Positions 8,069 through 63,800 of a stretch of 64,000 nt of DNA are shown one piece after another. Origin of the DNA: Anseranas semipalmata (Eukaryota > Chordata > Aves > Anseriformes > Anseranatidae); contig VXAA01000904.1 in the NCBI GenBank assembly GCA_013399115.1, positions 389,979 through 453,978 on the forward strand, in the 5' to 3' direction. Every line of letters begins with the position of its first letter. The stretch's first letter is position 1. Made by a program: the position numbers and the translations under genes. The notes under the pieces are model-generated. The model was not told where the DNA came from. It ran no database searches and worked only from the letters and a program-made list of their open reading frames with translations.

Positions 8069-8273
8069 TTACAGCTGAAGACATGCTTCTGAATCCTGTA
8101 GCTGCTCCTCAAAGTAGAGAAGCTGATCCACCTCAAAGCAATCACTTGCTCTAGAAACCAGTTTCTCCAGGTGTCTCCTGATCTCCTCCTCACTGGCCTT
8201 CTGCTGTCTCGCTTGCTTGAGATAGGTGTACACCTTCTCAAATACCTCTGCTCCCAGCTTCTGGATGGCAGAT
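8069..8273 (-). CDS. NEK11: NEK11 terminal coding exon with stop codon
   Basis: The exon starts after a TTTGTCCTTAG acceptor. One base completes Glu, then 67 codons run to a TAA stop at 8071-8069. It reads [38 protein letters not shown] and [20 protein letters not shown], ending QDSEACLQL. Human has SAMQKLGTEVFEEVYNYLKRAR and [17 protein letters not shown] at the same positions and a longer, unrelated last dozen residues. The exon is the most conserved part of the visible tail and is predicted to be mostly helical. Confidence 0.95.
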
Positions 8274-20200: not shown

Positions 20201-23200
20201 TTCTATGCTTTAGGCATTTTTAGGACTACTAATCTTACAGAATATCCAGTGCCCATTCAATCACTTCAGTATGACCTTTCTTTCTGAATTTTTAAGATGA
20301 ATGATATATTTTGATGCCAATGTCACATGCAAAAGAAGTATATATGCATACTGCTCATGAGTCTAAACCAATAGTGTTATAAGCATTCACAGGAACAGAA
20401 TAAAAATATCACTAAATGCCTTTTCTCCATGACTTCTGAAAAACAACTTTACTTACACTCAGCGGGTGATGATGAAGTCTTTTGCCTGATCGTGGTATGC
20501 TGCTGTGTGTAAGACTTCAGGGACTGACTAAGAGGTGCTTACTGCTGTGCTAAAGCATTTTAATTTACTTAAAAATTGGGGCATAAAAGACTTTTCCTTT
20601 TACTGACATGCATTTTATTGAATTCTAAATTGCATATTAAAGTTCACTGTTATTAAAATGACTCGTATGTATTCATGGATACCTCCACAAAGGAGCACAA
20701 AGTACCCTGTACTAACATTTTTTTTCTACATTTTCTTCATTTTTATTTCTTTTTATATTTTCAGGACAGAGAGAACAAGATATAAATTCTATTCCATAGA
20801 TATGCAATTATGCAAAAAACGGACTTACTCTGTAAAACACAAATCCTCATTTCACAAAGCCCAAGGAATGAATTTTTACTATAGTGCTGAGAAGGCTTCA
20901 AAGGGAAGCCTCTACTCACTGGACACCTGGGATACAAATACTACATAATAAAGGGAGGTGCAATTGTGAATATAAGCAACTGCACCAAAAACTGAAATAA
21001 GGTTTTTTCTTTTCCACAAATTTCTGCACAACTTGTCTGATTTCTCACCTTCTCTTTTCCATTTTAGATCATAAAACCCTGCAGTCAGATCTCAAGCATG
21101 CATCGTAAGACTTTCCACAGGTTTGTGAAGAGCTGTCTGAGGTCGTCATATACTTGGAAAGAAGGGCCTCATAATAAGATACAGCAAGATGAAAAGAAGC
21201 AGAGAAGCTTTTCCAGTTGCACATCTAAACATGCTTGGTCTGTCTCTTTTAATGTAGATTTTGACCTCTTTAGCCTCTTACAAGCCACAACAGCTATCAG
21301 TGCTGTTAGTCCATACCTGAAGAAAGCATTTAGTGTTGTCTACTAAGCTTTTCAGAAGCTAGCTAGAAAACAAGCCAGTGTTTGCTACAATGACTCTTCT
21401 AGATTTTCCCTAGGGACAAAGCCCATCTTTCAGGCAATGAGTACTAACAAAGCTTCTCATGTCTTGTAAAGAAGGCTTCGACAAGCTTTAAGGACCTCAA
21501 TGAAAAAAAAAAAAAAGAAAAAAAGGAATTGACGGTATAACAATTTGATCTGATAGAAAAAAATGCTTTGGTTTCAAGTGCTGTTTCTGAAGAACAATGT
21601 GGCTCTCTTCTAAGATGCATAGCTGGAAATTCTCTGTAAGGGAGCATCAGTGGAACTGCCACTAGTTCTTCCTCATTTATCTCTCTCTGGTGAAGACAAT
21701 TTGGCTCTAGATAGCATGTGAGAGTACAGCGTCTTAGACTGCAGCATGCAGTACCATCGGGGGTAGGAATGACCATGAGAACGAGATGGTGGCCAGGACA
21801 GAAAATACTCCTCCTGTTTCCTGCATCTAACAAGATTCCTAAACCTAGAAACCCAATATGAGGAATATGAGTCACAGAACTCTGATTTATATACTTGGCT
21901 GACTTCCCACCACTAGCATGCAAAGCTGGGAAGGAGGATAATAAGAAAAAGCTCAGATAACCTTTGCAGGAGCTAGTTCAAAAAATTGAGATTTCTCATC
22001 AACGCTGCAGAAGGTCCTAATATTGAAATTGTTAGCATTGAAGTAGAAATTTTTGCTGAATGAATTCCACTTGAAAGGTAAAGTTAAATCTCTGCTGCTA
22101 TAAACTTGATAATGAATACTGATACCAAGTATAACAAACTAGAAATTGTTGTCACTGGAGTAAGTGATTTTATCATGAGTTTTACTGAGAGGGCAGCAAT
22201 TCAAAATGCTGGAACAGGGTGTGCAATACGGATTGGAAAGAAGATGTTGGAGAAAACATTCAGGGACTGCTGTGAAGGAAGCTGGTGACTGAATCATAAA
22301 CACTATCAGGCTGCCTATAGGTTAAGCCCTGAGCAATTTTTTAATTTAAAATAGGAGACAAAGGACACCTACCTACCATGTTCAAGAACATCAGTGGCTT
22401 CTTTCTACACTCCTGTAAAGGCTTTTAGCACAACTTCCTGATACCCTCTCACATGAAAATATGTATGAAGCCCTGCACAAGAATACAGTAGAAGCTACCT
22501 AAACTGGCACTCTGAAATACAGCAATTCTCTGCACTGTCAAAGAACACATTCAGTGCAACACACTGCGATGACTCAAGCAACGAGCACATCACACCTTGT
22601 CAGGAGAATGTCTTGCTGCAGCTGTTTGCAAGCCCACATCATTCACATGTGTCAAAAATAGTTAAAGGCCCTTTTGCTGTTAGACCTTGTGTTCATTTTA
22701 CATGAATCTACCATTTTATCAGAGCTAATGAAAGAGCTTTTTTCATTATTGTTATTTGTAATATTTAGGCATAATGCTTACTTTCTGAGCAATTCATGAT
22801 ATAAAGGAGAGTCTCCCTTATCAGTCTATTGCTGTTGGCACCAATCCCAAATTTTCATATTTCTGTTTCTGCACTTCCACATTGTTTCCACTGCTTTTCT
22901 TCTCCTTTTCCTCACAAGAACTCCAGCTACTCATTTTCTATGAAACAAAAAAAACATATTCTCTCTTTCATTAGAAGCTGTCAACTGAAGACCCCACCAT
23001 AAGTCTATGGTTTCCTGAGTAAAACCGAATAGCACAAGTCTAAATTATTTGAGCCTTGCCTAAGTGGCCCTGCTGTGCAGATGAAGTACAACACATCATG
23101 TGAAGTTTGCTGAGGGATGAGCAGAGCAGCTGAGGCTACATGCATCATTCTGCAGTCAAATGTACTCCCTTCTCACCACTGAAAACTCCTCCACTGTGCT

Positions 23201-35200: not shown

Positions 35201-38200
35201 GAAAGGGAAAATTGAAAATTCTGCTCACTTACCAAGAAAAAGAAAAGGTGATTGTGTCAATACCCACAAACACAGTCCTGTCTTATCTCAGGTGTTGGTC
35301 AACATGAGTGAAAACAAAGACAGACTACTTACTTCTTTGACAGAGGAAGTCCTGAAAGGTGAATGCTCAGAGAGGGTGTGCTTTCCAGTCAGTCTGTGCA
35401 GGCCAATTCGCAGAGGGGTAATGCATGGTGTGCACATGGACTGCTGGTAAAGCAAAGCCACCCAGCCCACAGGGGCTGGATCCTGACAAGAGTTATCAGT
35501 GGGACAGCTCTTCCAACCCACAGTGTCAGTTCTTGTCACCACCGAATTCTGAATCACTACAAAATGACTGAGTGTCGTTGTTCAAATCTGGCTGCCAACA
35601 CCTAATTTAGTCTGCATTATTGAGAAATCTATTTTTATCTTCTGCCCTTCGTTAATTCTAAGCAGCAGTCTGCCTGTTCAAAAACAGTATTGATTGACAC
35701 TTAATGATACCGTCAATGAAAGCTGAATGAAAATTTTAAAAGGGATTCTAAAAAAGAAATAAATAAAAAAAACACAAAGTCTGATAAAAGTGAGCAATAA
35801 TTTATTTTCAGGAGTACATTGTGGTAGGTTTTTCAGGCAACAGAGTGTTTGCATGTCTATGTGTTGTGAGTAAACACAGACCCAGCAAATTGCAACAAAG
35901 CATTGCCTTAAATATTCCACTGATTTACAACTGACTATTTGTTTATATCACTACTGTATTAACTGTTAAAGCATGCTATGTGCTTAGTTTGAAAGCTTGG
36001 AGGACATTTTTAGATTGAATGAAGCTGTTTACGAGTAAACTTCAAGTTTAACTCGTTGAAAGAATTTCAGGATTCCCTGCTACTGTGGTAAAAGTAGCGT
36101 TCTTATTTCTCATTAAAGCATTTAACTTCTGCTTTAAAAACTACAAGAAACTTAAAGAAACTATTAGCTCAAACTTTTCAAAGAATATTACAAGTTATTT
36201 ATAATTTAATGAAGAGTTTTCAGCAAACCTGGTTGGTTCCCTAAGATGTAAACAACATCATACTCTATTCTGCACTTTTCACACATGAACTCAGAATAAC
36301 ATTTATGATCCTAGGCAAAAACAGACAGTACTGTTCAGAAGCGCTGTAACACAATGCCTTAAGTTGATGGCTCAGGGTAGAAATTAATTGTTCCTGAATG
36401 CCTTAGGAAGATCCATTTTCAGAACTGACTTGGGCATTTTGGTTCATTGATTTTTCTGAGACTTGATCACTTAAGACAAGATTCATCTCAGCTCATTCTG
36501 ATCAGATCTAAATTAGGTGCCTTTTCCAATCATCTTCAACCTTCTACAAACCGCAATCCCTAAGACTTTCTTGTGGCAGCATCACCTGGTAAAGCTACTT
36601 TAAGCCTTTCGATAACAACTTTTCTTTTTATTGACACTTTCTGAGATTCTTGGGAAAGTCTACAGATACTCTGGTGAAGACTTACAGTTGTTTAGGCTCA
36701 TAGTTCATCATACTATGCTAGAAAATATGTCTAACACAGGCAGGAAGAAGTGGCATATAGATGTGCCTATCTTTCCCCAGGAATTAGATCTGGAATTTAG
36801 GTCTTAAGCTTGAAGTATTCTTTCAGTGTTAACTTATCTTACACATAGCTAACATCACTTGAGAGAACCCCACTCAGAGCGTGTTATGGCCACAAGGAAG
36901 TTTACTGACAACTATCCACCCTAACGGATTCACAGGAATATTATTGCTAATCTTGAAGGAATGCAAGAATCTTTGTCAAGAATCTTTGTCAAGAATCAAT
37001 GACAAGAATGCAAGAACCAATGTCTCATATGAATTATACATATGCATACTTACATAATTAATTCATGATATTGATATACACACATTCTTGAAAAAAGCAA
37101 ATTTCAGTAATGTCAGTAGGACAAAAGCTTGGAAGGAGTTTAATTTTCCCTCAGAAAATGAGCATCAAATGTGTACTGTTTTCCCAAAGGTCACACATAC
37201 CTGGTGATTTGTCTTAGAGACAGTCTGTGATGCTTCCATATCCTCCTCCTCTTCACTGCCTTCTGAACAGGATTCAAACTCATCATTATAATATTCTTCA
37301 GCAATTTGTGGGTCTTCAGGGATCTCTAAAGGCAATTAAGAGTTTATAGTATATAGGCAGACAATATGCATGATCTTAGAAAGATGCAATGGATTTTATA
37401 TCACCCATGTTATGTCACTAACAATGCATTCTGTAATTGAAATCATTGGATAGATTCTCAGATTAAAATGTTCATCTGATGACATGATAAGCAATGCTAA
37501 AGCTGTCTCTGACAAAAGGTCAGACCCTCATATGTAAATTAAGGACCTCAAGGGATCTATATTGATTTTGGCCTGAAATCACTGAACCATAGAAAAATTC
37601 AGGCTGGAAAGGACCTCAGAGGATCCTCTAGTACAACCTCACTCAAAGCAGGGTCAGCATTCAATTGAATCTGGCTTTCATGGGCTGAAATTGTGCCTCA
37701 TTTTGGTTTTATCTAACATGCATGTCCTGTGACAAATATAATAACTAAGTTGAAATGGGAAATAATATATACCACAGAAATGTTTAAATATACAAGAGAG
37801 AAAATCTGTATGTCTTGCCAAACTCTCCCAAAACAAAAATGTAACAAAACAAAAGTAGTGCAAAGTCAAGCTACTTATCCTTAGCTGTCATGCTCACTCA
37901 GTTCATTACTATTACTTGAGAAGTTATAGAAATAGCAGTGAGTGCAACATTAAAATAGCCAATGAGCCTCTGAAGCCCAAGAACTGTTATTCAAACTCAA
38001 CATATTCATCACAGCATGAAAGACACCACAGCTTCTCTGCTCCAAGAGAAATCTTTGAGCATCCCTGACTCAATAAGCAATGAGTTAGCAAAGTAGCTGG
38101 AGGTCTGATTGCACCTGCTTCAGTGAGCTGCCCTTTCTCAGCAAAAGCCCTTAAGCACTTGTTCAATTTTAAGCAGAGGCTGGACTGTGGTGACTATCAA

Positions 38201-50200: not shown

Positions 50201-53200
50201 TTTACAGAGATATTTCTTAATAACCCAGTGTGGCTACCTACTCACCTTGCTGGCAGTGCATGCTAAAAGGATGCCCCATGCTTGTGTGATTATGAGTTCT
50301 CCTAACATATAGGCTGATGTTTTATGAAAGGAGACTTAATTTCCCTGCAAGCTCAGCCAGCACTGCACAGCAGCACTTCAAATGCTTCCCAGTGCTGCCA
50401 AGAAGCTGACGAGAAGGGTGGGAAGGGCACAGAAGCAATGCGCCACTGCTTAACCGAGAACGCAGCACAGCTGGCAAGGGAGAGGTCTGCTCTGCTGGAG
50501 TCGATATGCACAGGACTGCTTTCCATAAGCTAAGCTGGAGTGCATCACCAATACAAAGAAGCACCAGGATATTATAACAACATACACTGGATGACCCTGA
50601 GAACAGGAATCATGGAAAAAGAAAATTCAAAGAACAGAGTCCTAAGTGCAAGCATTAAAACCAAAATAATCTATTGTAAATTCAGAGATGACAACTTGGA
50701 AGCATCTTAATGAAGGAGGATTCAGGTATGCTGTGAGTGGCCAGTGTTAAAAGGTATGAAAAATACAGAAGTATTTTATTGAAGTATTATGCAGAAGGAT
50801 ATTAATGTTGCCATGTTGCCTATGAAATCATGAGGACAGTAAGCAAAGGAAGGAAAATAACTATTTAAGCTGCAAGTCAATAGGGCAATGCATCCTGCAA
50901 ATGTTGGCGTGAAACAGCCAGAAGTAAATCTAAGGCAGAAATAAGAAGGTTCACAAGCACTGCAGTATTTTGGCCCAGAAACAACTTTCTACCCAGAGAA
51001 GAACAGTGATCTTTCCAGAATGTACCGAACAGGCCAACTCCTGTTCTTACCCCTGCCATCAGAGTGGTTCCAAAGAGTGTTTATCAATATGGTGATAGGC
51101 ACTTTATAAAGCAGATACCTTATCTATCTATCTATCTATATATAAAGCAGATACCTTTGGCAGCCACAAGCTGGACTCAGTGGACAAACAGAAGCTTGTA
51201 CTTTTTCCACAGAACAGAAGCAAACGGTGGGGAAGTGGTGCCACTGGGGACAGCACATCCTCTCTAGCAGAGCACCGACAGCAGCCAAGATAATGGCTCT
51301 GAAAATGCGTGTTCTTAATGCACAGCTTCCTCTCTTGGGTCATTGAAACAAAAATAGCATAACTTGCTATTCACATAATTTTTCACAGTTGCCCACTCCC
51401 AGGTTAAAACCGGATCCCTTTCTTCTTGAGTTCAAGTAATGCAAGTGCAGAAGATTTCTGTCAGCAAAAGCTCGTGTTTCTTTGATCTCACCCACCCTCC
51501 AAGTTCTTCATTTCCTGCTGAACCATGGCAGGTTGTGCAGAACAGGTGCCCAGAATCCTGGAAGTGAACAGGGAGACAGAAGACAGCATGGCAAGTGCAC
51601 TGGCCATTGCAAGCTGGTTTGCCTTAGCAAATGACACCTGAACAGTCAGATTTTAAAATGACCCTCCGAATCAGTCCCACAAGATTCAGCTCCTGTCCAC
51701 ATGGAGCAGCCATTTCACGTCAGCATTTTCTCACAACAGTCAGGTTACCTCCGTGCTGCCATCAGGGGAGCCCTGGGAGCCTTGTGATGTCACCAGAGAG
51801 TCACTGTCACACTATGACCTCACAAAAGGTGGCTGGCCGTAAGTGCCCTGAGCGTCCGGCCTGCATCGACGCCTGCTGGTGGCACTTGAGAGATTGAGGT
51901 CCTGCTGGTAGGATGCAAGAGGTGGATGAGTCTTGCTGGTGGCGGGTGAGGTGTCGAAGTCCTTCTGGTGGAACACGAGACGTTGAGGTCCTGCCAGCGA
52001 CATGCGAGATGTCAAAGTCCTACCGGTGACATGCGAGGGAGGCACTGAGGACTGGAGGCTGCTGATAGCTGCCTGGCACCAGGACAGCATCCCACAGGGG
52101 ACGAGCATCTCCACGCCAGGCTGGCCACAGGCAACATGAACCAGCCACCCCAGGCGCTGCCAGCACAGGCCCCCAGGGACGAGACGTGTCCCATCTGCCT
52201 GGGCCTGCTGGCTGATGCATCCTGCCTGGACCCCTGCAGGCACAGCTTCTGCGCAGAGTGCATCCAGCGCTGGGCCGCCGCCAGAGCTGACTGCCCAATC
52301 TGCCGGCAGCCCGTTGTAGCCATCGTGTGCTGGGCACTGTGCTCCCCGGATGACGCCTCAGCCTGCTGGCCCTGGCACAGGTTCCAGCCCAACGCAGGGC
52401 CGGGGCCACACCGTCAGCGGCAGCGGCAGGGGAGCCCCTCCAGCTACTGGTCCCACAGCGGCTCACCGAGGCACAGGGAGCGCAGCCCCTCCACGCCCTG
52501 CCAGCGCGTCCGCAGCCTCTCCTGGAGCCGGGAGCAGGACAGGCAAAGACAGCTCCGGTCCCTGTGGGATGTCGACCCCGAGGTTGCGCAGGGCCCAATA
52601 GGAGGAGCCAGGTGCTGGTGATCATGCGCGCCACCATGCTGGGCCCCGCTTCTGAGCAGGCGGCCGGGCCGTGCCTGGGGACGGCAGCCACAATTACTGC
52701 ATGATTAAATTATTGGTTTCCACCATTCATGGTCATTCGTGTGGCAGCATGAGGAGAGGGCTGAAGGCAGCCCGCTCCCACTGCCTGTGCCCGCCCCACC
52801 AATTGGGGATGTCCGCTGCGGATGGGAGAGGACGGATGGATGGGAAATGGCTGCGGGTGGCAGCCGCCCATGGGAGACTCGGGGATGGGAATTTTGGGGA
52901 TGGGAAATCATCATGGGAATGGGAAACTGTTGGTGATGGAAGCAGCCATAAAGGTGACCTGGCCCTACTGGGAAAAAGGCTGCCAGAAAAAGTCTCCTAA
53001 AAGCCTGGAAGAAGAAAATGCCTGCTAGCCTGGGAACCAGGCCTGGGAACGTGGAGCATCCTCGGAAGGCACTGCTGGCCTCTTGGAAGTACCTGCTGGG
53101 TATCTAAGATCCAGAGACTTCCCGAAGATACCTCCAACAAGGGCAAAAGCAAGAGCAACTGACTGTCTGAAAAGGAGAAAATAATCTGGGAAAGGGACAA

Positions 53201-56200
53201 TTTTGAGAGACTAGCAAACGTCATCGTCTGTTGGTTGTCTCAAGTGAAACACAGAAATTAGCAGCATCTTTTGGCTGCTCTAAGGAGGTGGTATCCTATG
53301 CCCTCTTATGTCTCTTTTGAAAGAAAAAGGAGTCCTTGTCTATGCAAAATGGAGCCCATCTCTCTCCCTCAGAACTTCCTATGCTGCACAATTTTTTCTT
53401 TCCTACAGGATTTCCTAAACCAATTGAACCTTTGCTGGGGACACCTGGCTGACTCTGAACTCCGTGATGTGGATCGTCTTCGAAGTGTGACTTTGTTCTT
53501 TATTCATTTGGGCCCACTCCTGGGCCTACTTCTGGGGTTCAGTCTCTTCTGAGATTGGCTTTCTTACTTAGACCCTTTGAGGTCAGTTTGACACCCCACT
53601 TCTGGGATTGGTTTGATGCACTTGGTAACGGTAATTTAATGAAATATATGTACATGTATGTCCATAATCTGTCATAAGTGTAGTACTGATAAGTATAACC
53701 TATCATAAGCATATTTGCTGTTATAGTATTGACAATTGTAATCCATAATATTTACTGTTACAGTATTATACATAAGTTTGTTGAACCTAGAATACTAATT
53801 TAGATTTGCTGCTAGAATACTGATTTTCCTGCGTCTAGTTGCCTTCCTAATTGCTGCTACTATTAATTAGTGCTATTCATTCAATTTCCGCAACATATAT
53901 GTATATATATATATATATATATTTGCTTCCTGGTAATATTGAATTACAAATAGCTTGATATCTCTATCCATGTTCGCCGTTAATCACAGAATATTTGCTA
54001 GTGGTGATTTGTGGTCATCTGTAATAAAGAGAAGTTTTTAGAACATAAAGCCTCCGCGACCTTTTGTATTATGGAATCCTACCAACTCCCAGTTGTGATC
54101 TCTGTATACCCGCAGGCTGGTTAACCCTGAAGGGCAAATCATGAACTTCATAGGTGTCAGAAGTAAGATTCTGTAAAATACAGTCATGGATGCTTTCAAG
54201 GAGTTGGTAGAAGAACACTGAAAAGTGCACAAGGCTGTCCTGGTTTCAGCTGGGATAAAGTTAATTTTCTTCCCAGAAGCTGGTAGGGTGCTGTGTTCTG
54301 GATTTAGGATGAGAATAATGCTGATAACACACTGATCTTTTAGTTGTTGCAGAGCAGTGCTTACACTAAGTCAAGGCCATTTCAGCTCCTCGTGCTGCCC
54401 TGCCAGCGAGGAGGCTGGGGGTGCACCAGGAGCTGGGAGGGGACACAGCCAGGACAGCTGACTCAGACTGGCCAGAGGGATGTCCCATACCACGTGGCAT
54501 CATGCTGACGAATAAGACGGGGGGAAATTGATGGGGGAGGGGGACAGCGCTTTTGGGGGTCTGGCTGGGCATCAGTTGGTGAGTAGTGAGCAATTGCATT
54601 GTGCATCACTTGTTTTGGGTATTCTTTTATCATTACTATTATTATTATTGTTTTTCCCTTGCTTTTCTGTCCTATTAAACTGTCTTTGTCTCAACCCATG
54701 CGTTTTACCTTTTTTCTGATTCTCTCCCCCATCCCGCTGCGGGGGAGTGAGAGAACGGCTATGTGGTGCTTAGCTGCCTTCTGGCTTAAACCATAATAAA
54801 AATACAGCTGGATGGTATAATAAGGAACATAATGTTGAAGAACTAATAATTTTCTTGTTTAAAAATAGTATTTATATTGCCCGCAGCCTTTCTATGTAAG
54901 TACTACAACAATCAGATTGTTTAAGTTTCTGAAGAAGAAGCCATACAACCTGTGAACAGTCCGAATGGGCCTGCTCTGTAATAGACTGAGTTCTTCTCAA
55001 CATCAAGAGCACAGGGTCTGCTTAGATCTCTTTCATATCCCGAAAAAGAAAACCTGCTTGAAGACTAACAGATTGGTCAGCTATTTGTGATTTCAGACAA
55101 CTCTTTTAAATGTCGCTCAAGTGCACAGAGGTGCTAATTAGAATGAAAAATGTTCAAAAGATCATTGCTGATTACATTAAACAAACATGGAGAGAAGCTT
55201 AAACTTCCCAGGGAACTCTTCAGCAGTTAAATGTTTTTGACTTTGCTGAAACTTGTCCGCCATAAAGTCCAAAACCCCAAACTGCCATCTTGATTTTTGT
55301 TTATCTAACTACACTGTCTTGTTCTTCCCAGCCTTCAATAAATGTATATACTACTGTTAAAATTGGATCAAGATGCTATGGTTTTTAAATCTACTTACTA
55401 AAACTAAACCTTGAGGTTTGTATTTGACACCTTCCCCAACCACATATGTGTTTCATGATGCTTTAGATAATTTTCAGTGAAAGCATAGTGTAAGGTGTTT
55501 TATTTTCTACACTCTCCCTAACCCTTTAAGAGCCTTGTCCTTCTGTCCTCCAAGCCCTATCCTTCTCTTCTCTTCATGTTGCAAATTTTTCAAGGACTTC
55601 AGGATACGAGCCAAAGATAACTTGAACTTTCCTCCCTACTTGTTGGGATTGGGGTTACAATCCTTAGCTGTTCCTCACCAGCTTTTCCCATTCCTGAGAG
55701 GATTTTTACGTTTGCCCTGAAATAGCTTAAAGTCTGCTACTGCTGAGCCTCCTCGGTATTCATGTACAGACCCCCTCCCCTGCCTTTTTGCCCCTTCCTC
55801 AACTGCTGTTAGTTCTTAGTTATAACTAGGGAGCTTGTTTGTCTGGCATTCATCTAACTTCTTCTGCTAACCTGGTATAGATTAGCCAAATTTATTCACA
55901 CATAAGAAATTTTATTAAACCATTTTATAGCCTTGCTTATAGTTTTCTTGTTTTTCTATTGTATAGCCCATTGATTGAGAACCAAATTCTATTGAAAATC
56001 AATAGCTGGAACTGTTTCTACATTATCAGATACAAAGACTCCATTAATAACTTAATTAATAGCATGTAGGACATGCATGGTTGTGCTGAAATGTTTAATG
56101 AAAAGAAGAGAATGAATACTGAATAGAGTAAGTAACAGCTTTGACATCAGCTTCAGGTATAACAAGGTATTCACAAAGCAAAGAAGAGAAACCATGTAAT

Positions 56201-59200
56201 TTCCTTTGCCTATCCATAAGCCCTTTTTCTCATGAATCCGCCACTTCAGAGAATCTGACAAAAGCAGTGTCATTAAACACACATTCAGCTTTGTATAGCT
56301 TTGGATTGACCAAACTTTTGCATCACAGATATAAATGCATCTTATTTCCATCATTATAGTTTAACAACTAAATGACCTCTAAAGACAGAAACATCAGTTT
56401 CTTTCCTTTTTTGCATGTTCTTCTGTTTCTATTTATATTTCTTTGTATGCTTCCTCCGGTACATCTCCCACCCACATTTACTGCTTTCTCTCAGTCTCCT
56501 ACTTGCAAGCTTCTCCACCCTCCCCCCAGGACGTATTTCTAGCAGCTGGGTTCTCTCCTACACAGATCATCCCTCCTTGTACTGTGAAACAGCAAGCCAA
56601 CCACAAAGACATAAATGAGGCTACACTGAAAGAAAAAAGCCATTTGCTATTAAAAAAAAAATCACCTCTACCACAAACAAATTGATTTTGGTGCCTTTGA
56701 TTTAATGACATATCCCTTTACAGACATACATAAAACAACACTAAAAGGCAGAGCTATCAGTTTCTATATTTTAAAGTATATTAATGTATACTTGCAAGAT
56801 TGTAATCTGATTAAAAATCTACCACCATAATAGTGCTCACACAATGATTCTTAAATATTGAAGAGTAAGACACTACTCCAGAACACTGTAGAAACAAAAC
56901 ATACATATGTGCTCTGAGAAATATTTTCCTCATTAAGTACATTTCGACAGTCTGACCGTTTTTCAAAAGCTTGACTATTCATTCATCTATCTACAGTTAA
57001 GTAGATGTTACATAGTACTCCATATCCTCTAGACAGTAGCTAAGTATCTGAGGACAGTACAGGTAAGCACAGTTTGAAGAGTTTCCATCTGCTTCTCTCA
57101 TTGTTATAGGTAATGAAAATGGTATCAAAGTGTACCAAAGGTGCAAAACATTCTGTATTCCTGTACTTGTTTTTGCACTAGAGAGGTAATTTACGAAATG
57201 CTTTTCTAATACATGTCATTTCATACGTGCAAAGGTTAAAGCTATTTCCTTCTAACACTGCATCTCTTTTGGAGGTGTGTTCACCTCCTTTGCTGCTTAA
57301 AGGTCACTCAAACTCTGGGCACCCAGCCCTCCTGCCACATAACCCTGCTGTACATCCAGACTACATACATCCACCTAGATTATTTTCCTTCTCTCATTGT
57401 AGATTTTTTGACTGCTTTACAAATCTGACTGCTTTTTATACTGCAGGTTCATCACCATAGATTAAATACAAGGGACAAAATCAGATCTGGCTTTGTTTAT
57501 TGGAAGTTTCAATTCAATGTAAGATTTTTAATTCTTACCATGGTCTGTAAGTTCAGATATGCAGAGTTGACTTGATCTCTCATTTCCACTTGATTCATCA
57601 CATCCTATGGACACAGAGTCGCATGTAGTGACTGGCTGAGAATGAATTAGCGGTTTGGAAGTCTGTTCATCAGATTCCTTAGTCAAACAAAGCAGCATGG
57701 AGAAACAGGTACAGTTAGAGCTTTCAGCAGGACCACAATACAATGGCTGCCCTGATCCACAAAACTGCTGGGACTCATATTCAGCAAATACCAAAAAAAA
57801 ACAACCCTCCTAACTCTTTTATAAATGATCAGCAGTGACTCAGCCACAAGTTAAGACAGATTTAACATGATTTTTTTTCTCCAGAGACAATGAGAAATAG
57901 AAACTAGAGTACATGCTAAAGAAAAGGTAGAGAACAAAGCACTAAACCAAACCTTGTTATTTCTGTGATGATTTCACTATTTCCAAACCGACACTGTTCA
58001 CTGTATGACAAAACATAGTGCTAGTTCTGTTGCAGATACCTTAAAAGCTGGGAGTCATTCCAAGACTTCATTCTTACTAAGACAGTTGAAATGTTAATAT
58101 TCTTAACCAATCAAATGAAAAGAATCCACAGCCATGCCAAGTAAGAGTGTTTGAAGGATTACAAATCTTGAAAATGAATGTATTTTGAACTCTGATATCA
58201 CATAGAAGATCAGTAAGTCCAGATTTAGATTTAAGGGCGTCCAAATAGAAGAAAATTTTTCAATAAATAGTTTGTTGAACTATGTCTGAATATCTGAATG
58301 TACTTGCTCTCATCAAAGATCCACAGGGTTCGGCTAAGTGGTCCGGACTTCGATGCACTTCCAAATTATTAATCTCAGGGCAGGACTATGTATCAAGTCC
58401 TAAAGAAAGTGTGTGGAGAACAGAAGAGGTATACACTGAAAGTGTGTAAATGAGGCCTCCAAGACAACAGCCCATACTTACATGTAGGACATTGACATTC
58501 AGCTGCTGAAAATTACGGGACCTGAATTCTTGCATTCTTTTGATATTTTCTTGATATTTTTCTTCTGCCAGCTGTCTGTAAATACAGAATACTTGCAATT
58601 AGGCTGTGATATCAGGGATTGCACAAAGAGATCTTCTAACGGTAGATGTGGAAAATCAAATGCCATAATCAGAATGCTATGGTGCCAAACGTTCATGGTA
58701 TCTACTCAAGGTGAGGTTAGTTTTAGTGAACTCACAAATAGATCTCAGGCTTTATTTCCAAACAGTGATCATACTTATCTTTCACAACCTGCATAATATT
58801 ATTGAGAAACAGTAAATTATTAGCCCCAGTCTCTTTTCTCTCTTCCAAAGATCTTAAACATGTCAGACTTTATTCCACTATGTAGTCCAGGGACCTTTCA
58901 GGTAAAGACAGGCACACAACACTTGTGTGCTATGAACACTTCCCCTGGGGTAGAGTTGGAAATGGTATTTTTTCTGTACGGGACTACTTATGCCAGGTGC
59001 TACACTAAGCAAATCCTCCAGCTTCCATCACTAAATTCCCTTCTCATCTATGACTAGATTTGCACTGCTGAAAGCAGATCTCTAGTGTGAGAAGCTACTA
59101 TGTTTTTGCACTGTTTCAAATATTTTCAGGCAGAATCAGCTGGCAATAACCCAGAGCTTAATATAGATCAGGGTAAAACCATCACAATTTTGAAGATTGA

Positions 59201-60840
59201 TGATTGAGAATAAGATTGGCAGATTAATATGTTGCCTTTATATTACAAAATACATATATTTACTTTTGTTGCTGGGGAAAAAAACATGAAAATCTAAATA
59301 GAAAACGCTAAAATGCAAGAAAGAAAAGAAAATGAAAAGCAAACTAGAAATAGACTGCAATTAGCATTATTTCCTAATTTCCATCCATTTAAAAAAAATG
59401 AAAGAGACAGACTTCCTATTTATAAATTTCCTATGAGAATGGGCCTACCATACTGTTGAGAACACCATGCAGAAAAGGTGTTAACTTTTATATAGTGGTT
59501 TCATTTCAAGGAGGTTTGTTTTTTTTTTTTTTTTTTTTTTGTTAATTTGTATAAATTTACATACCATCTCCAGTCTCAAATGCAATGGTTGGTGTCAGAC
59601 AGACATAAATGCTGATCAGACATATTTTCCAAAAGGAAATAAAGGCCTTTAAATTTTTATTTCTAGCTTTTGGGTACAGGCACAACAGGCTGGCACAAGT
59701 AACACTAGGATGTGATTTTACAGAGAATTTTTGTAAAGCTGTAATTAGCATTCATTTGCAGGTATGTGCAACAGCTGCAAAGTTACTGAGGCCAAAAATT
59801 CAGACTTCATGTTACTTTCCAATATTTCTCTGAAGTAAGACATCATTGCCTTACTGAACTGCTAGCTTGTTTTGGCATGACAGGGCTAAGATGCCGATTC
59901 TTATGATCAAAAATAATCATTCCTATTTTACCCTCTATAAATAACTGAGTAAACATTTGTTAATTTATATTGTACTTTGCAAAATGCTTTTAAGAAAATA
60001 TTAAAAACGAATGTGGAGCTTTTCTGATTTACATTCACATCACTTGGAACACTGAACATTTTTAACTGGGAAAAACTCAAGTGTGTCATCAAAACAGTAT
60101 TTTCTTTCTATTTAAAAATGGAATCCATGCATACAAACATAGCCTTCAAGCTGCTTCTCATATGCCACTCAGAAGTGGTACTTCAAATCACCCCTTTCAT
60201 TATGTCTTTCGTACTTAATAAAAAACTATAAACTGTAAAGCCCTTACAATGTGTCGATCACCCCATTATTTGATCATTTGATAAGACTATTTTCTCTGAG
60301 CTATTAACTTCCATTGGCAAATCTCTTAGGACAAAACAATTGACAAAAGCTGTATTGTAACTAAACATCCAACTCCTCAGAATATGCAATCCTTAAAATG
60401 ACAAGTCATTAACAAAATCCCCTATTGTAATGAATCTGAAAATCTCTCATATAGTTATTTAAACAGAAATACTGTGCTCAAAGTACCAGTTTTGGGCTAA
60501 TGCTCTGACTTTTTTTTCTACATAAATAATTACCATGATTTAACTCATCCAAAATCCCCATTTACTTTGAGTTAGTTGAAGACCCTTTTTTTAAATTTTA
60601 GTTTATTTTAAATTTTATTTTTTTTTATTTCTATCTTGACTGTTCCAGTTCTCTAGTTAGACTGCTGAAAAGGGAAAATTGCATGGTTAGGGCAAAATAA
60701 TAGTGTTATGCACAACTTACTTCAACTTCTTTGCTTTCTCATCTGCAGCATTTAACTTCCTCAGCCTCATTCTTTCCCGTGGTGTCATTTTCTGAACTTC
60801 AGACAGTTCCTGTAGAGTTTGCAAATGAACTTTCCTTTGC
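8069..60840 (-). CDS. NEK11: NEK11 spliced coding region, C-terminal part (seven exons; 5' exons outside window)
   Basis: NEK11 is a NIMA-related Ser/Thr kinase of the DNA-damage response. In human it acts downstream of CHK1, phosphorylates CDC25A to mark it for degradation (G2/M arrest), and is also linked to NEK2A in the nucleolus. The visible exons encode about 280 residues of the non-catalytic half: the basic/coiled-coil segment after the kinase ([15 protein letters not shown], then [12 protein letters not shown] and RSRNFQQL), an acidic stretch ([12 protein letters not shown], then [10 protein letters not shown]), a DSDIEAM segment, and the conserved end ([15 protein letters not shown] and [16 protein letters not shown]). 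These follow human NEK11 as I remember it, in the same order. Phases join exactly at all six junctions, with GT donors and AG acceptors. The kinase domain is not in the window. There is no frameshift or internal stop, so the gene looks functional. Family identification is very secure; one acceptor (third visible exon) has an alternative. Confidence 0.95.
10536..10536. other. Single ambiguous base (N)
   Basis: An N directly at the end of a T homopolymer; most likely an assembly or polishing uncertainty in homopolymer length. Confidence 0.9.
12060..12950. repeat. Probable ancient interspersed repeat (unnamed, amniote-wide type)
   Basis: Blocks such as AGATTTAAACCCACATCTCCC, given here as TTTAAACCCACATCTCCC, then TGATTTGTATAAAAG, CATAGGCACTTAG and GTGCCTAAAAATG, recall a degenerate repeat seen in bird, turtle and crocodile DNA (parts reading like 'TTTAAACCCAGGTCTCCCA' and 'TAGGCACCTAA'). 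The resemblance is from memory, and both boundaries and class are uncertain. Confidence 0.35.
15369..15432. repeat. Compound (ACA)n / (CA)n microsatellite
   Basis: About seven ACA units (15371-15390), an A-rich spacer, then about nine CA units (15402-15420) and a CA-rich tail. Located in the NEK11 last intron. Confidence 0.95.
15882..15903. repeat. Poly(T) run (22 bases)
   Basis: A perfect T homopolymer; on the minus strand a poly(A). No recognisable retroposed body is attached. Confidence 0.9.
18119..18557 (+). mobile_element. CR1 LINE, 5'-truncated, with intact 3' end, plus strand
   Basis: Typical CR1 3' region: GAGGAACGGCTGAGGTCACT, CCTGAGAAGAGGAGACTGAG, GGGTGTTAGGAAAAGGTTCT, GGGCACTGGAACAGGCTCCC and a CR1 tail ending ATTCTATGATTCT. 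No poly(A), as expected for CR1. It is less diverged and more GC-rich than the other copies here, so probably the youngest CR1 in the window. It holds no complete ORF and sits sense-opposed to NEK11. Confidence 0.95.
23476..23490. repeat. Poly(A) run
   Basis: A homopolymer followed by an A-rich, then C-rich stretch; no element attached. Confidence 0.7.
25244..25340 (-). CDS. NEK11: NEK11 exon F
   Basis: This 97-nt exon lies between a TTTGTAG acceptor and a strong GTAAGTAA donor. It completes Gly and encodes [20 protein letters not shown], then [11 protein letters not shown], ending two bases into a Glu codon. Human ends the same exon with VMARTKMKRMRE. The first half is poorly conserved and Pro/Gly/Thr-rich. 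The basic end leads into the conserved C-terminal domain in the last exon. Confidence 0.93.
25841..25908. repeat. TA/TATG-rich microsatellite
   Basis: Alternating TA with TATG and CATA interruptions; strongly self-complementary and likely variable in length. Confidence 0.9.
26030..26345 (-). mobile_element. Probable CR1 LINE fragment, old, minus strand
   Basis: Reads like the reverse complement of a CR1 3' region: a CACAGAA-type start (AATCACAGAAGACTG), ACAATTCCAGAGCCTCACTG, and AAATTTATTTACTGGCCAGC followed by a TTTTTCTCCTGTGTTAGTCC end. Highly diverged, so the family call is moderate. Confidence 0.5.
32086..32105. repeat. Poly(A) run (20 bases)
   Basis: A perfect A homopolymer about 360 bases from exon E on its downstream side; no element attached. 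Confidence 0.85.
32466..32526 (-). CDS. NEK11: NEK11 exon E
   Basis: This small 61-nt exon has a TTTATCCTCAG acceptor and a GTAAGATG donor. It encodes [20 protein letters not shown] plus the first base of Gly. The human counterpart is DSDIEALARCLENVLGCTSL. The predicted helix has a regular hydrophobic pattern. It is too short to stand out as an ORF and was found from its splice sites and its homology. Confidence 0.93.
32527..37200 (-). other. NEK11: NEK11 intron between exons D and E (about 4.7 kb)
   Basis: Bounded by GTATGTG and CCTCAG. It holds an AATA run (34012-34027) and a 13-bp tandem repeat (36964-37018) about 180 bases from exon D. Nothing else is recognised. Confidence 0.85.
36964..37018. 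repeat. 13-bp tandem repeat (CAAGAATCTTTGT)
   Basis: Two exact copies of CAAGAATCTTTGT (36964-36989), then a third variant (CAAGAATCAATGA) and two decayed partial units starting CAAGAA. Confidence 0.9.
37201..37325 (-). CDS. NEK11: NEK11 exon D (acidic segment)
   Basis: This 125-nt exon runs from a GCCTTTAG acceptor to a GTATGTG donor. It completes Glu and reads [18 protein letters not shown], then [20 protein letters not shown] and NHQ. Human has IPEDPLVAEEYYADAFDSY followed by an acidic run, so both the motif and the acidic character are kept. It ends in phase 0, and the next exon starts DSDIE, as in the human QQDSDIEAL junction. The Glu/Ser-rich composition suggests a disordered, PEST-like regulatory segment; that role is an inference. 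Confidence 0.95.
37583..37675 (-). mobile_element. CR1 LINE 3'-end fragment, minus strand
   Basis: About 90 bases matching the reverse complement of the CR1 3' end: CATAGAAAAATTCAGGCTGG, AAAGGACCTCAGAGGATCCT and CTCACTCAAAGCAGGGTCAG. Short and truncated. It lies 260 bases from exon D, inside the large intron. Confidence 0.85.
40681..40710. repeat. 15-bp direct duplication
   Basis: CAAAAGAAAAAGAGT is followed immediately by CAAAAGAAAAAGAGC; a perfect tandem pair apart from the last base. Confidence 0.9.
41661..42077 (+). mobile_element. CR1 LINE, 5'-truncated, with 3' end, plus strand
   Basis: CR1 landmarks in order: CTGGAGCATCTGG, TGTCTACAACTATCTGA, AATGGAGCCCAACTCTTCTC, CATCCTTGGAGGTGTTCAAG, CTGCCCGAGAGGTCTCTTCC, and a tail ATTGTATGATTCTGTG. 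Moderately diverged, with no ORF. Confidence 0.92.
42491..42538. repeat. (TTTC)n/(TTCC)n microsatellite
   Basis: A pure pyrimidine tract of mixed TTCC and TTTC tetramers, about twelve units. Confidence 0.95.
51105..51156. repeat. (TATC)n microsatellite inside a 16-bp direct repeat
   Basis: TATAAAGCAGATACCT occurs at 51105-51120 and again at 51141-51156, separated by five TATC/TCTA units and TATA. The pattern suggests slippage or a local duplication that captured the microsatellite. Confidence 0.9.
51785..51822 (+). promoter_or_regulatory. Two near-CRE sites upstream of the RING ORF (candidate promoter)
   Basis: TGATGTCA (51785-51792) and TGACCTCA (51815-51822) each differ by one base from the palindromic CRE TGACGTCA and lie 30 bp apart, about 315-350 bp before the RING start codon. 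CREB/CREM binding, possibly testis-specific, is an inference. No TATA box is obvious. Confidence 0.3.
51872..52049 (+). repeat. 29-31 bp minisatellite (about six units) upstream of the RING ORF
   Basis: Units begin at 51872, 51901, 51932, 51961, 51990 and 52019, each starting CCTGCTGGT or a variant (CTTGCTGGT, CCTTCTGGT, CCTGCCAGC, CCTACCGGT) and ending GAGGT, GAAGT or AAAGT. The period is 29 bp except one 31-bp unit; the last unit decays. It probably lies in the 5' UTR of the RING transcript. Its antisense frame is also open, but that reading is just the repeat. Confidence 0.88.
52136..52621 (+). CDS. TOPORS-like C3HC4 RING-finger protein (161 aa, single exon)
   Basis: A probable E3 ubiquitin (or SUMO) ligase. 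The RING is complete: Cys18 and Cys21 (CPIC), Cys34 and His36 (CRH), Cys39 and Cys42 (CAEC), then Cys53 and Cys56 (CPIC), spaced x2-x12-x1-x2-x2-x10-x2. The block [19 protein letters not shown] and the following [13 protein letters not shown] resemble TOPORS, and TOPORS also has an Asp-Asp pair about 10 residues after the RING (SPDD here). The tail, residues 85-150, is Arg/Ser/Gln-rich ([24 protein letters not shown]), echoing the RS-rich part of TOPORS, but the protein is far shorter than TOPORS (about 1000 residues). The start codon has A at -3, and an ATTAAA signal lies 80 bases after the stop. No intron is needed, which fits a retrocopy or a member of an avian multicopy family. It lies antisense within a NEK11 intron in GC-rich DNA unlike its surroundings. 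The domain is certain; expression and the orthologous name are not. Confidence 0.75.
52704..52709 (+). terminator. ATTAAA polyadenylation signal after the RING ORF
   Basis: An ATTAAA variant signal in GCATGATTAAATTATTGG, about 80 bases after the RING stop codon, followed by a T/G-rich stretch (TTATTGGTTTCC and GGTCATTCGTGTGG). It would give a compact transcript of under 1 kb. Confidence 0.45.
52805..52945 (+). repeat. Degenerate GGGATGGGAA-type repeat
   Basis: Scattered copies of GGATGGGA, GGGAATGGGAAA, GGATGGGAATTT and GGATGGGAAATC over 140 bases. G-rich on the plus strand; it opens overlapping ORFs that are only the repeat. Confidence 0.7.
53230..54075 (+). other. Stretch of uncertain origin, possibly an LTR or exon remnant
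   Basis: The stretch has a strong splice-acceptor-like motif (ATTTTTTCTTTCCTACAG, ending 53408). It also has an open frame to 53552 ending in a hydrophobic run ([19 protein letters not shown]), a TA microsatellite, and AATAAA at 54023-54028 followed by AAGCCTCCGCGACC. This could be internal or LTR sequence of an endogenous retrovirus or a 3' exon of the RING transcript; I cannot decide. Confidence 0.3.
53894..53922. repeat. (TA)n microsatellite
   Basis: Alternating TA with one G interruption, about fourteen units. Confidence 0.95.
54236..54798 (+). mobile_element. Solo LTR of an avian ERVL-type endogenous retrovirus
   Basis: Starts TGTCCTGGTTTCAGCTGGGA and runs about 560 bases to GGCTTAAACCATAATA. 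It holds the landmarks I recall for this common neoavian family: GGATTTAGGATGAGAATAAT, GAGCAATTGCATTGTGCATC, an ATT-repeat tract, a poly(A) signal in CTATTAAACTGT, and TCTCCCCCATCCCGCTG. No second copy, polypurine tract or gag-pol sequence is visible, so it looks like a solo LTR. The expected terminal CA is degraded and no target-site duplication is clear. Confidence 0.85.
54799..57538. other. NEK11: Intronic sequence between the LTR and NEK11 exon C
   Basis: Mostly AT-rich, with C/T-rich stretches (about 55.5-55.8 and 56.4-56.6 kb). No exon, RNA gene or named repeat recognised. Confidence 0.6.
57539..57677 (-). CDS. NEK11: NEK11 exon C (variable linker; acceptor choice uncertain)
   Basis: This 139-nt exon encodes 46 residues beginning [10 protein letters not shown] and ending SELTDH, plus the first base of the Glu codon that starts EIPEDP in the next exon. 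Human NEK11 has ESDEPT and GYHEIPEDP at the same points. The donor is GTAAGAAT. The chosen acceptor (GACTAAG) has a textbook layout: a CTAAC branch-point motif about 36 nt upstream and a pyrimidine-rich tract. The frame stays open upstream, and a second phase-0 acceptor (TCCCAG, exon start 57767) would add 30 Cys-rich residues with little likeness to human. The middle of the exon is poorly conserved, as expected for a disordered Ser/Thr-rich linker. Confidence 0.85.
57678..58481 (-). other. NEK11: NEK11 intron between exons B and C (about 0.8 kb)
   Basis: Begins GTAAGTATG and ends GACTAAG with a CTAAC branch-point motif. Human NEK11 has roughly 35 extra residues at this junction; I looked for an exon encoding them here and found none that stays in frame between good splice sites. 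Confidence 0.8.
58482..58575 (-). CDS. NEK11: NEK11 exon B
   Basis: This 94-nt exon lies between a TTTACAG acceptor and a GTAAGTATG donor. One base completes the Lys codon from the previous exon, then 31 codons read [17 protein letters not shown] and [14 protein letters not shown]. This matches the human coiled-coil segment [22 protein letters not shown]. It ends in phase 0 after His. The sequence is Lys/Glu-rich and helical. An alternative acceptor four bases further in (TTTACAGACAG) would break the frame with the previous exon, so the first AG is preferred. Confidence 0.95.
58576..60720 (-). other. NEK11: NEK11 intron between exons A and B (about 2.1 kb)
   Basis: Bounded by GTAAGTT and TTTACAG. 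It contains a 22-base T run (59519-59540) and is otherwise unremarkable AT-rich sequence. Confidence 0.85.
59519..59540. repeat. Poly(T) run (22 bases)
   Basis: A perfect T homopolymer in a NEK11 intron, with no attached retroposed body. Confidence 0.9.
60721..60840 (-). CDS. NEK11: NEK11 exon A (first visible coding exon)
   Basis: This 120-nt exon runs from a CAATTTCAG acceptor to a GTAAGTT donor. It encodes [30 protein letters not shown] and then AADEKAKKL, almost identical to the human segment just after the kinase domain. It starts with the third base of a Met codon (ATG split as AT|G) and ends two bases into a Lys codon. The protein segment is highly charged and likely helical, forming the start of the NEK11 coiled-coil region. 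Open reading continues through both splice sites into the introns, but that part shows no homology. Confidence 0.95.
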
Positions 60841-63800
60841 CTGAAATTGAATGCATGCAAACCTATCTTCATATAAAGATGTAAATATTGGTATTTTGAT
60901 TTGATATTGAAACATACTGACATTTCAAATTGAATAATTAGAAAGTCACAGGTAATATAACAGATTAAATAGACCTTAGTCTGGAAAACAAATGCTTCTT
61001 TTAAATTGAAATATTTAAACTTAGACTGAGATTCATGAAGAACATGAATCATTTCAGGCATTTCATGTGAGAACAGAAAAAGGTAAACTCTGCTCCTTGA
61101 AAGAATAAATGTTGAAGCACAGTGAAATATTTATCCTGTCAGGATTTATTATTGAGCATATTACAAATCCAATGGCAGTTTTTAAATGGGAAACACAGAA
61201 AACAGAAATACCACTTATATGTTTTGCTTTGATTGTTACAAGTTGGCTGCAATAAAAGACAGCATTAATGTATATTTAATGAAAGTCATAATTATCATGT
61301 TGTCCTCTTGAGTTTCTGGTCCTAATCGATAATAACAACTCACTGGTAAAATGGTCTCTGTGGACCATCCTTGAATGCTAAGCATCTATTATTAACATTT
61401 GTATCTCAGCTGTATTTATCAACACAGGAGAGCAATACTAGTCCTATATCAGAAAAAGGATATTAATCTTGTATTTTACCTCATATCATATAGCAATTAC
61501 AAAAATTGAGCCATAGTTTGCAACGATATGGCATTCATATTTCACTCACACCAAAGTTTTGCATTCTTTGTATTCATGATACCAAGTTCTCATTTCAAAT
61601 GGCTATTTTTTCTCTTATGAGATAAATTCACTTATCATCTAAGAGCCCATTTTTTTAAGCATATAAATTTCAACACTCCTTGCGGACTATCATTTTGAAA
61701 TCAGGATTTCAATAACTGACAAGCTTTCATTATGGTTTTCAAATGTTGACTATAGAGGGAAATAGTGTAAAGATATGAAAATTACTGTGAAATACGAAAG
61801 ACTAAGGACAAAGACAAGAAGACTTTAATTATTAATAAGAATGGAACTAACTCCTCAACTATGAATAATGCAGACATATTTCTTGTCCCCTGTAAAAAAA
61901 AACCTCAAATTTAAATTATAAGAACCTCATGGGAAAAAAAGTCATTTTTCATCCAAGTCGAAACTGAACTCATACAGCTTTTTTCTTACTTTAAATATTT
62001 AAAATTTATGACTTGCATGGGACTGGAATAAACTAAGCCATTAGAAGCTTTTACTAGAAGAAACTAGACTCAACTATACATAGCAAAAATAATTCCTAGT
62101 GAGGAAAAAAATCATAAAAATAAAGTAGCAATGTCTGGGGAGGACACCATAACAAGCAGCTCCCTGTACACGCACACAGACTACAGCAGATGTGGGAAAC
62201 TCACTATGTTTAAATTATTTCTCCTCTGCTTTCTTTTTGCATGCCACCATTTTTCAGGTATTTTTACTTCATTTTACCTACCTCTTTAGATCTGGGATTG
62301 AAAAGAATATTTGGCATTTTGCTTACCAGTAGCAATAGAGACAGCTAACATTCTCATAAATGCAATAAAAGTCATAATATACTTATGAATTTATATGTAT
62401 TCTAAACATTTAATCAAAAAGAATCAGACTATAGCACATTTGAATATAATTTATACTGAAGCTTCTCATAGGACTTTTTTGTTTTGTTTTGTTTTGTTTT
62501 CCCAATTGATGCTCTGAAAAGTTCAAGGTCAATTTCCATGCTCTCACAAAAACAGCTGTTATCCATCCCTGCACAGCTTTTAGGAGTCTGGACCTCAGCA
62601 CAGAGAAGCTGACTTTCTATTGCTTTTAAAAGAAGTATAAGAACATGATGCTTGCATTTAGAACTTGCTCTTCATCTTAAACACTTGAGACTTGCTTTTG
62701 AACAAGAATAGTTATAGACTCTGGGATATGCAATCATGTTCTCACTGTGTGCTAGCTCTGTCAATATGTGATGTCCATTTGGAAAGTGATGAGATCTGAT
62801 ATATTCAAACTAATGACAATGGAACATAGTATATATTACAGATAATAGAAAATGGTTTTATCAGTCTGTTCTAGAAACATAGGGATGTTTGAAGTCTAGG
62901 TATATATTTTGCAGGTAAAAATATTGCTTTCTAAAAGCTTCTATAATCTTTTGATGCATATAGATAGTTTGAAGTCCTGTACAAAATATAAGTGAAAACC
63001 CATAAAATAAAGGTTTGGATTAAAAGTTTTTTGAAGATTCTCATAGTACATGTTTTAATAAGCATTTAACACTCAATATAATTTATATAGAGTTGGCATA
63101 ATATTTGGGCAAGATTTCAGTGCCTCAAAACTAGTTAAGGTATATCTCTGAGGAGCATCTCTGCAGTTAACTGTATTTCATTTGAACAAACAGGAATCCA
63201 CTCAGAGTTAATTAAATCAACCTGAACACAGCAGCAATACACAAAAAATATGTCTAACACTTCCTGAGTACAGCACATCTGCCTGTGTGACTGTTGTGCT
63301 TCCAGTATACTAGCAAAGGGCTATTTCTAGCAGAAGCAATAATAGCAGAAGAGCAAGAATGCCAAAAACTAGACAATGCAGGCATCATTTGTTACTGCCT
63401 CTTACAGCTATGCTTGCAAAGTTCAACAATGTGTTTAAACTAAAGTGGAAACCAAAGCAGAGAACTCTGGTCTGATAAGAGGACAGAGACTCATCTGACA
63501 ACAAGAGAGAGCAAGAACAGAAATGACAGGGTGGAAAACCTGACCGCAATTTCTAGCTATGAGAGCTTTACAGATATACTCCAAGTAGTCGCACTGGGTA
63601 ACAAAAATGTACAGAAGATTTTTCTGTGCTGAATCCAATGTCTTTATTCCACATTCTTCCTATCACTGGTTGTATTAAATAACCCTTTCTTTTGCAAAAT
63701 TGTAGTTGGTCACCTCTCCTGAAGGAATGCTTGCAAGCAGTAGAATTGGTAGCATCTGCAAAGTGACCACAGCTGAAAAACTGCAGGTCTACCCTGAGAA

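What the first reader, a model, noticed from the sequence alone, without database searches (positions are those of the whole stretch)
51780..52730. Small TOPORS-like RING gene nested antisense in a NEK11 intron
Seen: an intact 161-codon single-exon ORF with all eight zinc ligands, a Kozak-compatible start, a nearby ATTAAA signal, and GC-rich composition sharply different from the AT-rich intron. Known: TOPORS has a RING of this type followed by an Arg/Ser-rich region, and RING genes related to TOPORS occur in multiple copies in some bird genomes (from memory). Inference: a retrocopy or lineage-specific duplicate that kept or gained its own promoter, possibly germline-expressed. The truncation to RING plus a short RS tail would make it an unusually small ligase.
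Basis: partly seen in the sequence, partly recalled or inferred. Interest (0 to 1): 0.75.

Follow-up and report, generated by a model that had tools for sequence, protein, structure and literature searches.

The report
Small TOPORS-like RING gene in NEK11 intron
A short, intact stretch of protein code for a small zinc-binding protein of the ubiquitin-tagging kind, resembling part of a known protein called TOPORS, sits backwards inside an intron of another gene; it looks like a fairly ordinary diverged gene copy whose expression is untested.

Summary
The ORF exists as described: 52136-52621, + strand, 161 aa, inside an intron of a NEK11-like gene on the - strand. Its length is not evidence of a gene: 208 of 500 shuffles of the GC-rich segment hold an ATG ORF at least as long, and the antisense ORF is longer, 205 aa. 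Other evidence does show coding ancestry: a complete C3HC4 RING (Pfam E 1.3e-10), a third-position GC excess in this frame (1 of 2000 shuffles; after the RING 2 of 2000), and an Arg/Ser-rich tail (24 of 55 residues; 3 of 2000).

Of the sequences compared, the single RING closest is human TOPORS (48.5 bits, recalled sequence); the best single-RING PDB chain scored 40.7. Only the RING aligns. No target-site duplication or poly-A tract was found, so a retrocopy is not shown.

Best reading: a diverged, truncated TOPORS-like RING gene, probably able to bind an E2, with unknown substrate. Expression, copy number, synteny and dN/dS could not be tested: the genome search did not answer and no vertebrate collection was at hand. 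A new member of a known kind, of modest interest.

The parts
52136..52621 (+). 161-aa ORF: RING plus Arg/Ser-rich tail
52187..52303 (+). RING finger proper, residues 18-56, eight zinc ligands; I20, W46, P54 in E2-contact places and R57 just after the last Cys (roles recalled)
52406..52570 (+). Arg/Ser-rich tail, residues 91-145 (12 R, 12 S of 55)
52704..52709 (+). ATTAAA, possible polyadenylation signal
51872..52037 (+). degenerate tandem array, unit about 29-30 bases, upstream of the ORF
51785..51822 (+). two CRE-like octamers (TGATGTCA at 51785, TGACCTCA at 51815); pattern match only, no chance control
51700..53100 (.). GC-rich segment with raised CpG in the AT-rich intron (approximate limits)
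60708..60869 (-). NEK11-like coding match (recalled human residues 312-365; the match overruns the exon ends)
58482..58577 (-). NEK11-like coding exon (recalled human residues 361-392), donor gtaagt
37282..37326 (-). next significant NEK11-like match downstream (recalled human residues 467-481)
8099..8272 (-). NEK11-like coding exon (recalled human residues 574-631)

Best explanation
A small, diverged TOPORS-like RING gene with an uninterrupted frame, lying antisense in a NEK11 intron. Shown: the frame, the eight zinc ligands, the codon signal of this frame and the Arg/Ser-rich tail. Inferred: the RING binds two zincs and recruits a UBE2D-type E2 (I20, W46 and P54 in the usual E2-contact places, R57 as linchpin), so the protein would transfer ubiquitin, while the basic Arg/Ser tail would send it to the nucleus, RNA or chromatin and help to choose targets. 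Nothing beyond the RING aligns with TOPORS, so it should not copy TOPORS's known dealings with p53 and SUMO in full. Whether it arose as a DNA-level duplicate or an old retrocopy is open. Whether it is transcribed is unknown.
For: Pfam RING, six models above their cutoffs, best E 1.3e-10. Third-position GC excess 0.19 in the ORF frame: 1 of 2000 shuffles (whole), 2 of 2000 (after the RING); high in the three sliding windows covering 52161-52580. R+S 24 of 55, 3 of 2000 shuffles (stretch chosen after seeing it). phmmer 48.5 bits to recalled human TOPORS, 22 of 50 RING positions identical; 40.7 for the best single-RING PDB chain, 1chc. Recalled TOPORS also has 1chc as its best PDB match, 57.8 bits. 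None of the 28 differences from recalled TOPORS falls on the 11 ligand and E2-contact sites (P about 2e-5 if placed at random). Substitution-only neutral simulation, 4000 runs each: frame open with all 12 sites kept in 6.75% at 5% divergence, 0.475% at 10%.
Against: ORF length is within chance. In other frames the third-position signal reaches 0.11-0.14 in windows outside the ORF, and in the ORF frame it is gone (0.03) in 52521-52700, so the last residues may not be ancestral coding. Seven upstream ATGs lie in 51780-52135; that at 52002 opens a 45-codon frame overlapping the start codon out of frame. No relative in the protein database, phages or viral contigs, though none is a vertebrate collection. 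The single-sequence fold was poor (mean pLDDT 55.7) and matched no PDB chain. A RING2/BMI-1 chimera with two RINGs scores 52.4 in sum, above TOPORS, though its best stretch scores 30.0. The ligand pattern could have been laid down in a functional ancestor before a recent death of this copy.
Confidence: 0.55

Rival explanations
1. A recently dead or dying copy: a TOPORS-like paralogue was inserted or duplicated into the intron, makes no protein, and keeps its frame only because it is young.
For: In the substitution-only neutral simulation 24% of frames stay open at 5% divergence and 56% at 2%. Upstream ATGs disfavour translation and the codon signal fades at the 3' end. No expression data were available.
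Against: The RING differs from recalled TOPORS at 28 of 50 positions with no loss at the 11 ligand and E2-contact sites, so much of the divergence accrued under constraint, in this copy or in its source.
Confidence: 0.33
2. A RING gene not descended from TOPORS but from another RING family with the same spacing, whose Arg/Ser-rich tail arose on its own.
For: Only residues 15-64 align to recalled TOPORS. The viral RING of 1chc scores 8-10 bits lower but at the same identity (45% over 49 against 44% over 50). The comparison set was the PDB plus two recalled sequences, not the vertebrate RING repertoire. A recalled avian Topors-like RING scored only 39.0.
Against: Recalled TOPORS outscored each single-RING PDB chain, and an Arg/Ser-rich tail follows the RING, as in TOPORS (its plan recalled).
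Confidence: 0.1
3. A chance ORF in a GC-rich segment.
For: Length is within chance and the antisense ORF is longer.
Against: The RING match, third-position GC and Arg/Ser content are each beyond chance.
Confidence: 0.02

Closest known systems
[quoted passage not shown]
   Same: Same RING spacing, 22 of 50 positions identical without gaps to the recalled human RING; an Arg/Ser-rich stretch follows.
   Different: 161 aa only; no alignment beyond residue 64 to the recalled N-terminal part of TOPORS; Arg instead of Lys after the last RING Cys.
Avian genes annotated 'E3 ubiquitin-protein ligase Topors-like'
   Same: The annotation exists in chicken (PMC7563548, one table passage seen). A recalled example of such a RING scored 39.0 bits.
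   Different: Scores below recalled human TOPORS in the same comparison; length and tail could not be compared, as no such sequence was at hand.
RING of equine herpesvirus 1 (PDB 1chc)
   Same: Best single-RING PDB match, 40.7 bits; also the best PDB match of recalled TOPORS.
   Different: The surroundings are a vertebrate intron; no viral relative was found in the viral contigs scanned.

Membership tests
C3HC4 RING finger | Eight zinc ligands with RING spacing | tested here: met
C3HC4 RING finger | Ubiquitin transfer with an E2 | not testable with these tools
   needs protein; only E2-contact-type residues seen
TOPORS | RING closest to TOPORS among RINGs | tested here: inconclusive
   best single RING of the set compared, but TOPORS was recalled and the set is not the vertebrate RING repertoire
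TOPORS | Arg/Ser-rich region after the RING | tested here: met
   24 of 55 residues are R or S, 3 of 2000 shuffles
TOPORS | Long central region, full length about 1000 aa (size recalled) | tested here: not met
   161 aa; alignment to recalled TOPORS ends at residue 64
Retrocopy | Target-site duplication and poly-A remnant | tested here: not met
   no exact repeat of 10-13 bases between 51300-52136 and 52621-53700, no A-run of 8 or more in 52601-53800; imperfect flank pairs of 16-19 bases at 74-81% exist and look like chance; an old copy could have lost both marks
Bird multicopy Topors-like family | Close copies elsewhere in the genome | not testable with these tools
   The genome search 'own' unanswered six times; no second copy in the window at E 1

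The most novel reading that the evidence does not exclude
A lineage-specific, germline-expressed minimal ligase, just a TOPORS-type RING and an Arg/Ser tail, that competes with or redirects full-length TOPORS at its nuclear targets and belongs to a family of such mini-ligases spread through the genome.
Probability: 0.1. Interest if true: 0.55.

Novelty: new member of a known kind. Interest (0 to 1): 0.27.

Why it matters
If expressed and constrained, it would be a natural minimal RING plus Arg/Ser ligase and could show what the RING end of TOPORS does without the rest. It would also be a clean case of a GC-rich gene kept inside an AT-rich intron on the opposite strand. Nested genes as such are common: one survey counts 474 in chicken (PMC2151771, table passage).

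Tried and rejected
Length as evidence: rejected, because 208 of 500 dinucleotide shuffles of 51801-53000 hold an ATG ORF of 161 codons or more, and 232 of 500 a stop-free frame of 190 or more.

Antisense ORF 52020-52637 (205 aa) as the true gene: rejected. The two long antisense frames scanned had no Pfam match at E 0.1 (proteins 5 and 6), and the codon signal sits in the sense frame. A weak antisense match to recalled NEK11 inside the ORF (52542-52489, E 2.5; 18.9 bits) was checked as a possible NEK11 exon: at least 7 of 60 shuffles of the intron reach more (19.2 bits or above), so it counts as chance.

Relatives: protein searches gave 32 candidates, none at E 0.001, and for the RING alone 5 candidates, none at E 1; phages none; viral contigs 2 pattern matches, neither confirmed, and none for two DNA patterns. 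None of these is a vertebrate collection. Structure: poor single-sequence model, 0 Foldseek matches in the PDB; nothing concluded. Rfam: 0 matches in the window at gathering score. The bacterial promoter scan does not apply to a vertebrate window and is not used.

Literature: eight searches. 'Topors-like' with 'birds' gave 1 paper; 'topors' with 'passerine' 1 (TOPORS in gene lists, two passages); 'topors' with 'zebra finch' 0; 'ubiquitin-protein ligase topors' with 'chicken' 1, the same paper. Loose searches listed 20 of 1,061 papers and 15 of 2,229; no listed title is about a bird TOPORS family. Searches (6 papers; 2 papers) served for TOPORS function and nested genes. Seen as passages: PMC7563548, PMC11439032, PMC7916862 (12 of 17 places), PMC2151771. 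PMC12751080: reference list only, not used.

Full report
What is there. At 52136-52621 on the + strand an ATG opens a 161-codon frame. Residues 18-56 form a C3HC4 RING with all eight ligands; Pfam lists 12 families at E 1 or less, six of them RING models above their cutoffs, best E 1.3e-10. Residues 91-145 hold 12 Arg and 12 Ser of 55. The segment is GC-rich (up to 0.72 in 200-base windows) in a window of 38.9% GC, and its CpG ratio is about 2 to 3.4 times the window's.

Chance. The length does not prove a gene: in 500 dinucleotide shuffles of 51801-53000, 208 held an ATG ORF of 161 codons or more, and the real antisense strand holds one of 205. Composition by codon position does speak for coding. 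Third-position GC exceeds the mean of the other two by 0.19 in this frame; 1 of 2000 shuffles reaches this with the best of three registers taken, and for the part after the RING (52331-52618) 2 of 2000. In sliding windows the ORF frame stands at 0.18-0.26 in the three windows covering 52161-52580 and near zero or below elsewhere. Against this, other frames reach 0.11-0.14 in four windows outside or at the edge of the ORF, and the ORF frame falls to 0.03 in 52521-52700, which leaves the last residues in doubt. Arg plus Ser content of the tail is reached by 3 of 2000 shuffles, for a stretch chosen after seeing it.

Setting. A gtaag donor lies at the 3' end of four of the six, read by eye. The ORF lies between 58482 and 37326, so it is antisense in a NEK11 intron. 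Recalled residues 393-466 were not placed with confidence: the two best candidates, 57680-57618 (19.6 bits) and 52542-52489 (18.9 bits, antisense to the ORF itself), do not exceed shuffles of the intron (5 of 60 reach 19.6, 7 of 60 reach 19.2). The species is not known to me; one match to a CR1-type 3' end (18543; motif recalled) hints at a bird or reptile.

Kinship. phmmer of the ORF gives 48.5 bits to a recalled human TOPORS and 39.0 to a recalled avian Topors-like RING. In the PDB 105 distinct sequences match at E 0.01 (best 60 shown): first a RING2/BMI-1 chimera with two RINGs (52.4 bits in sum, best stretch 30.0), then 1chc, a herpesvirus RING, at 40.7. Recalled TOPORS has 1chc as its best PDB match too (57.8 bits). 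So the RING is of the type shared by TOPORS and that viral RING, with TOPORS the nearest host RING compared. The alignment stops at residue 64.

Constraint. Of 50 aligned RING positions 28 differ from recalled TOPORS; none is one of the eight ligands or I20, W46, P54, with a chance of about 2e-5 if differences fell at random; R57 is Lys in recalled TOPORS. The roles of these residues are recalled. This suggests that the lineage diverged while functional; it does not show that this copy still is. In a substitution-only neutral simulation (4000 runs each, indels left out) the frame stays open with all 12 sites kept in 33.6% of runs at 2% divergence, 6.75% at 5%, 0.475% at 10% and none at 20%. 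The copy is therefore probably young or constrained.

Origin. No exact repeat of 10 to 13 bases joins the flanks (51300-52136 and 52621-53700) and no A-run of 8 or more lies in 52601-53800; a few imperfect flank pairs of 16-19 bases at 74-81% identity look like chance. The GC-rich segment reaches some 430 bases upstream, with a degenerate tandem array of about 29-30 bases, and 400-480 bases downstream. A retrocopy is not shown; a DNA-level duplicate with its own flanks is at least as likely.

Function. TOPORS ubiquitinates p53 with UbcH5a, UbcH5c and UbcH6 and needs its RING for this, while the RING is optional for sumoylation (PMC7916862, passages seen). By inference the ORF product would be a small ubiquitin ligase with a basic, nuclear-type tail; its substrate is unknown. 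ATTAAA at 52704, two CRE-like octamers at 51785 and 51815, and a half-site at 51717 are only pattern matches. Seven upstream ATGs, one frame overlapping the start codon, count against translation if transcription starts far upstream.

Not tested. Copies, synteny, dN/dS and expression: the genome search did not complete, and the other tools hold no vertebrate genomes by their descriptions.

Noticed in passing
52020-52637 (-): A 205-aa antisense ORF overlaps the RING ORF; most likely a mirror of GC-rich coding; the longer stop-to-stop frame has no Pfam match.
   Followed up: yes
51872-52037: Degenerate tandem array with a unit of about 29-30 bases just upstream of the ORF.
   Followed up: partly
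52817-52947: Repeated ATGGGAA-type units downstream of the ORF within the GC-rich segment.
   Followed up: no
57618-57680 (-): Weak candidate for a further NEK11 exon with a gtaag donor some 80 bases on; not above shuffles (5 of 60).
   Followed up: partly
18543 (+): Single CR1-type 3' end motif (recalled), a hint of a bird or reptile genome.
   Followed up: no
54300-54600: A second, smaller GC-rich island in the same intron (GC 0.55-0.61).
   Followed up: no
21447-21977 (-): 177-codon stop-to-stop frame with a weak p31comet match below the Pfam cutoff (E 5e-4); probably chance.
   Followed up: no
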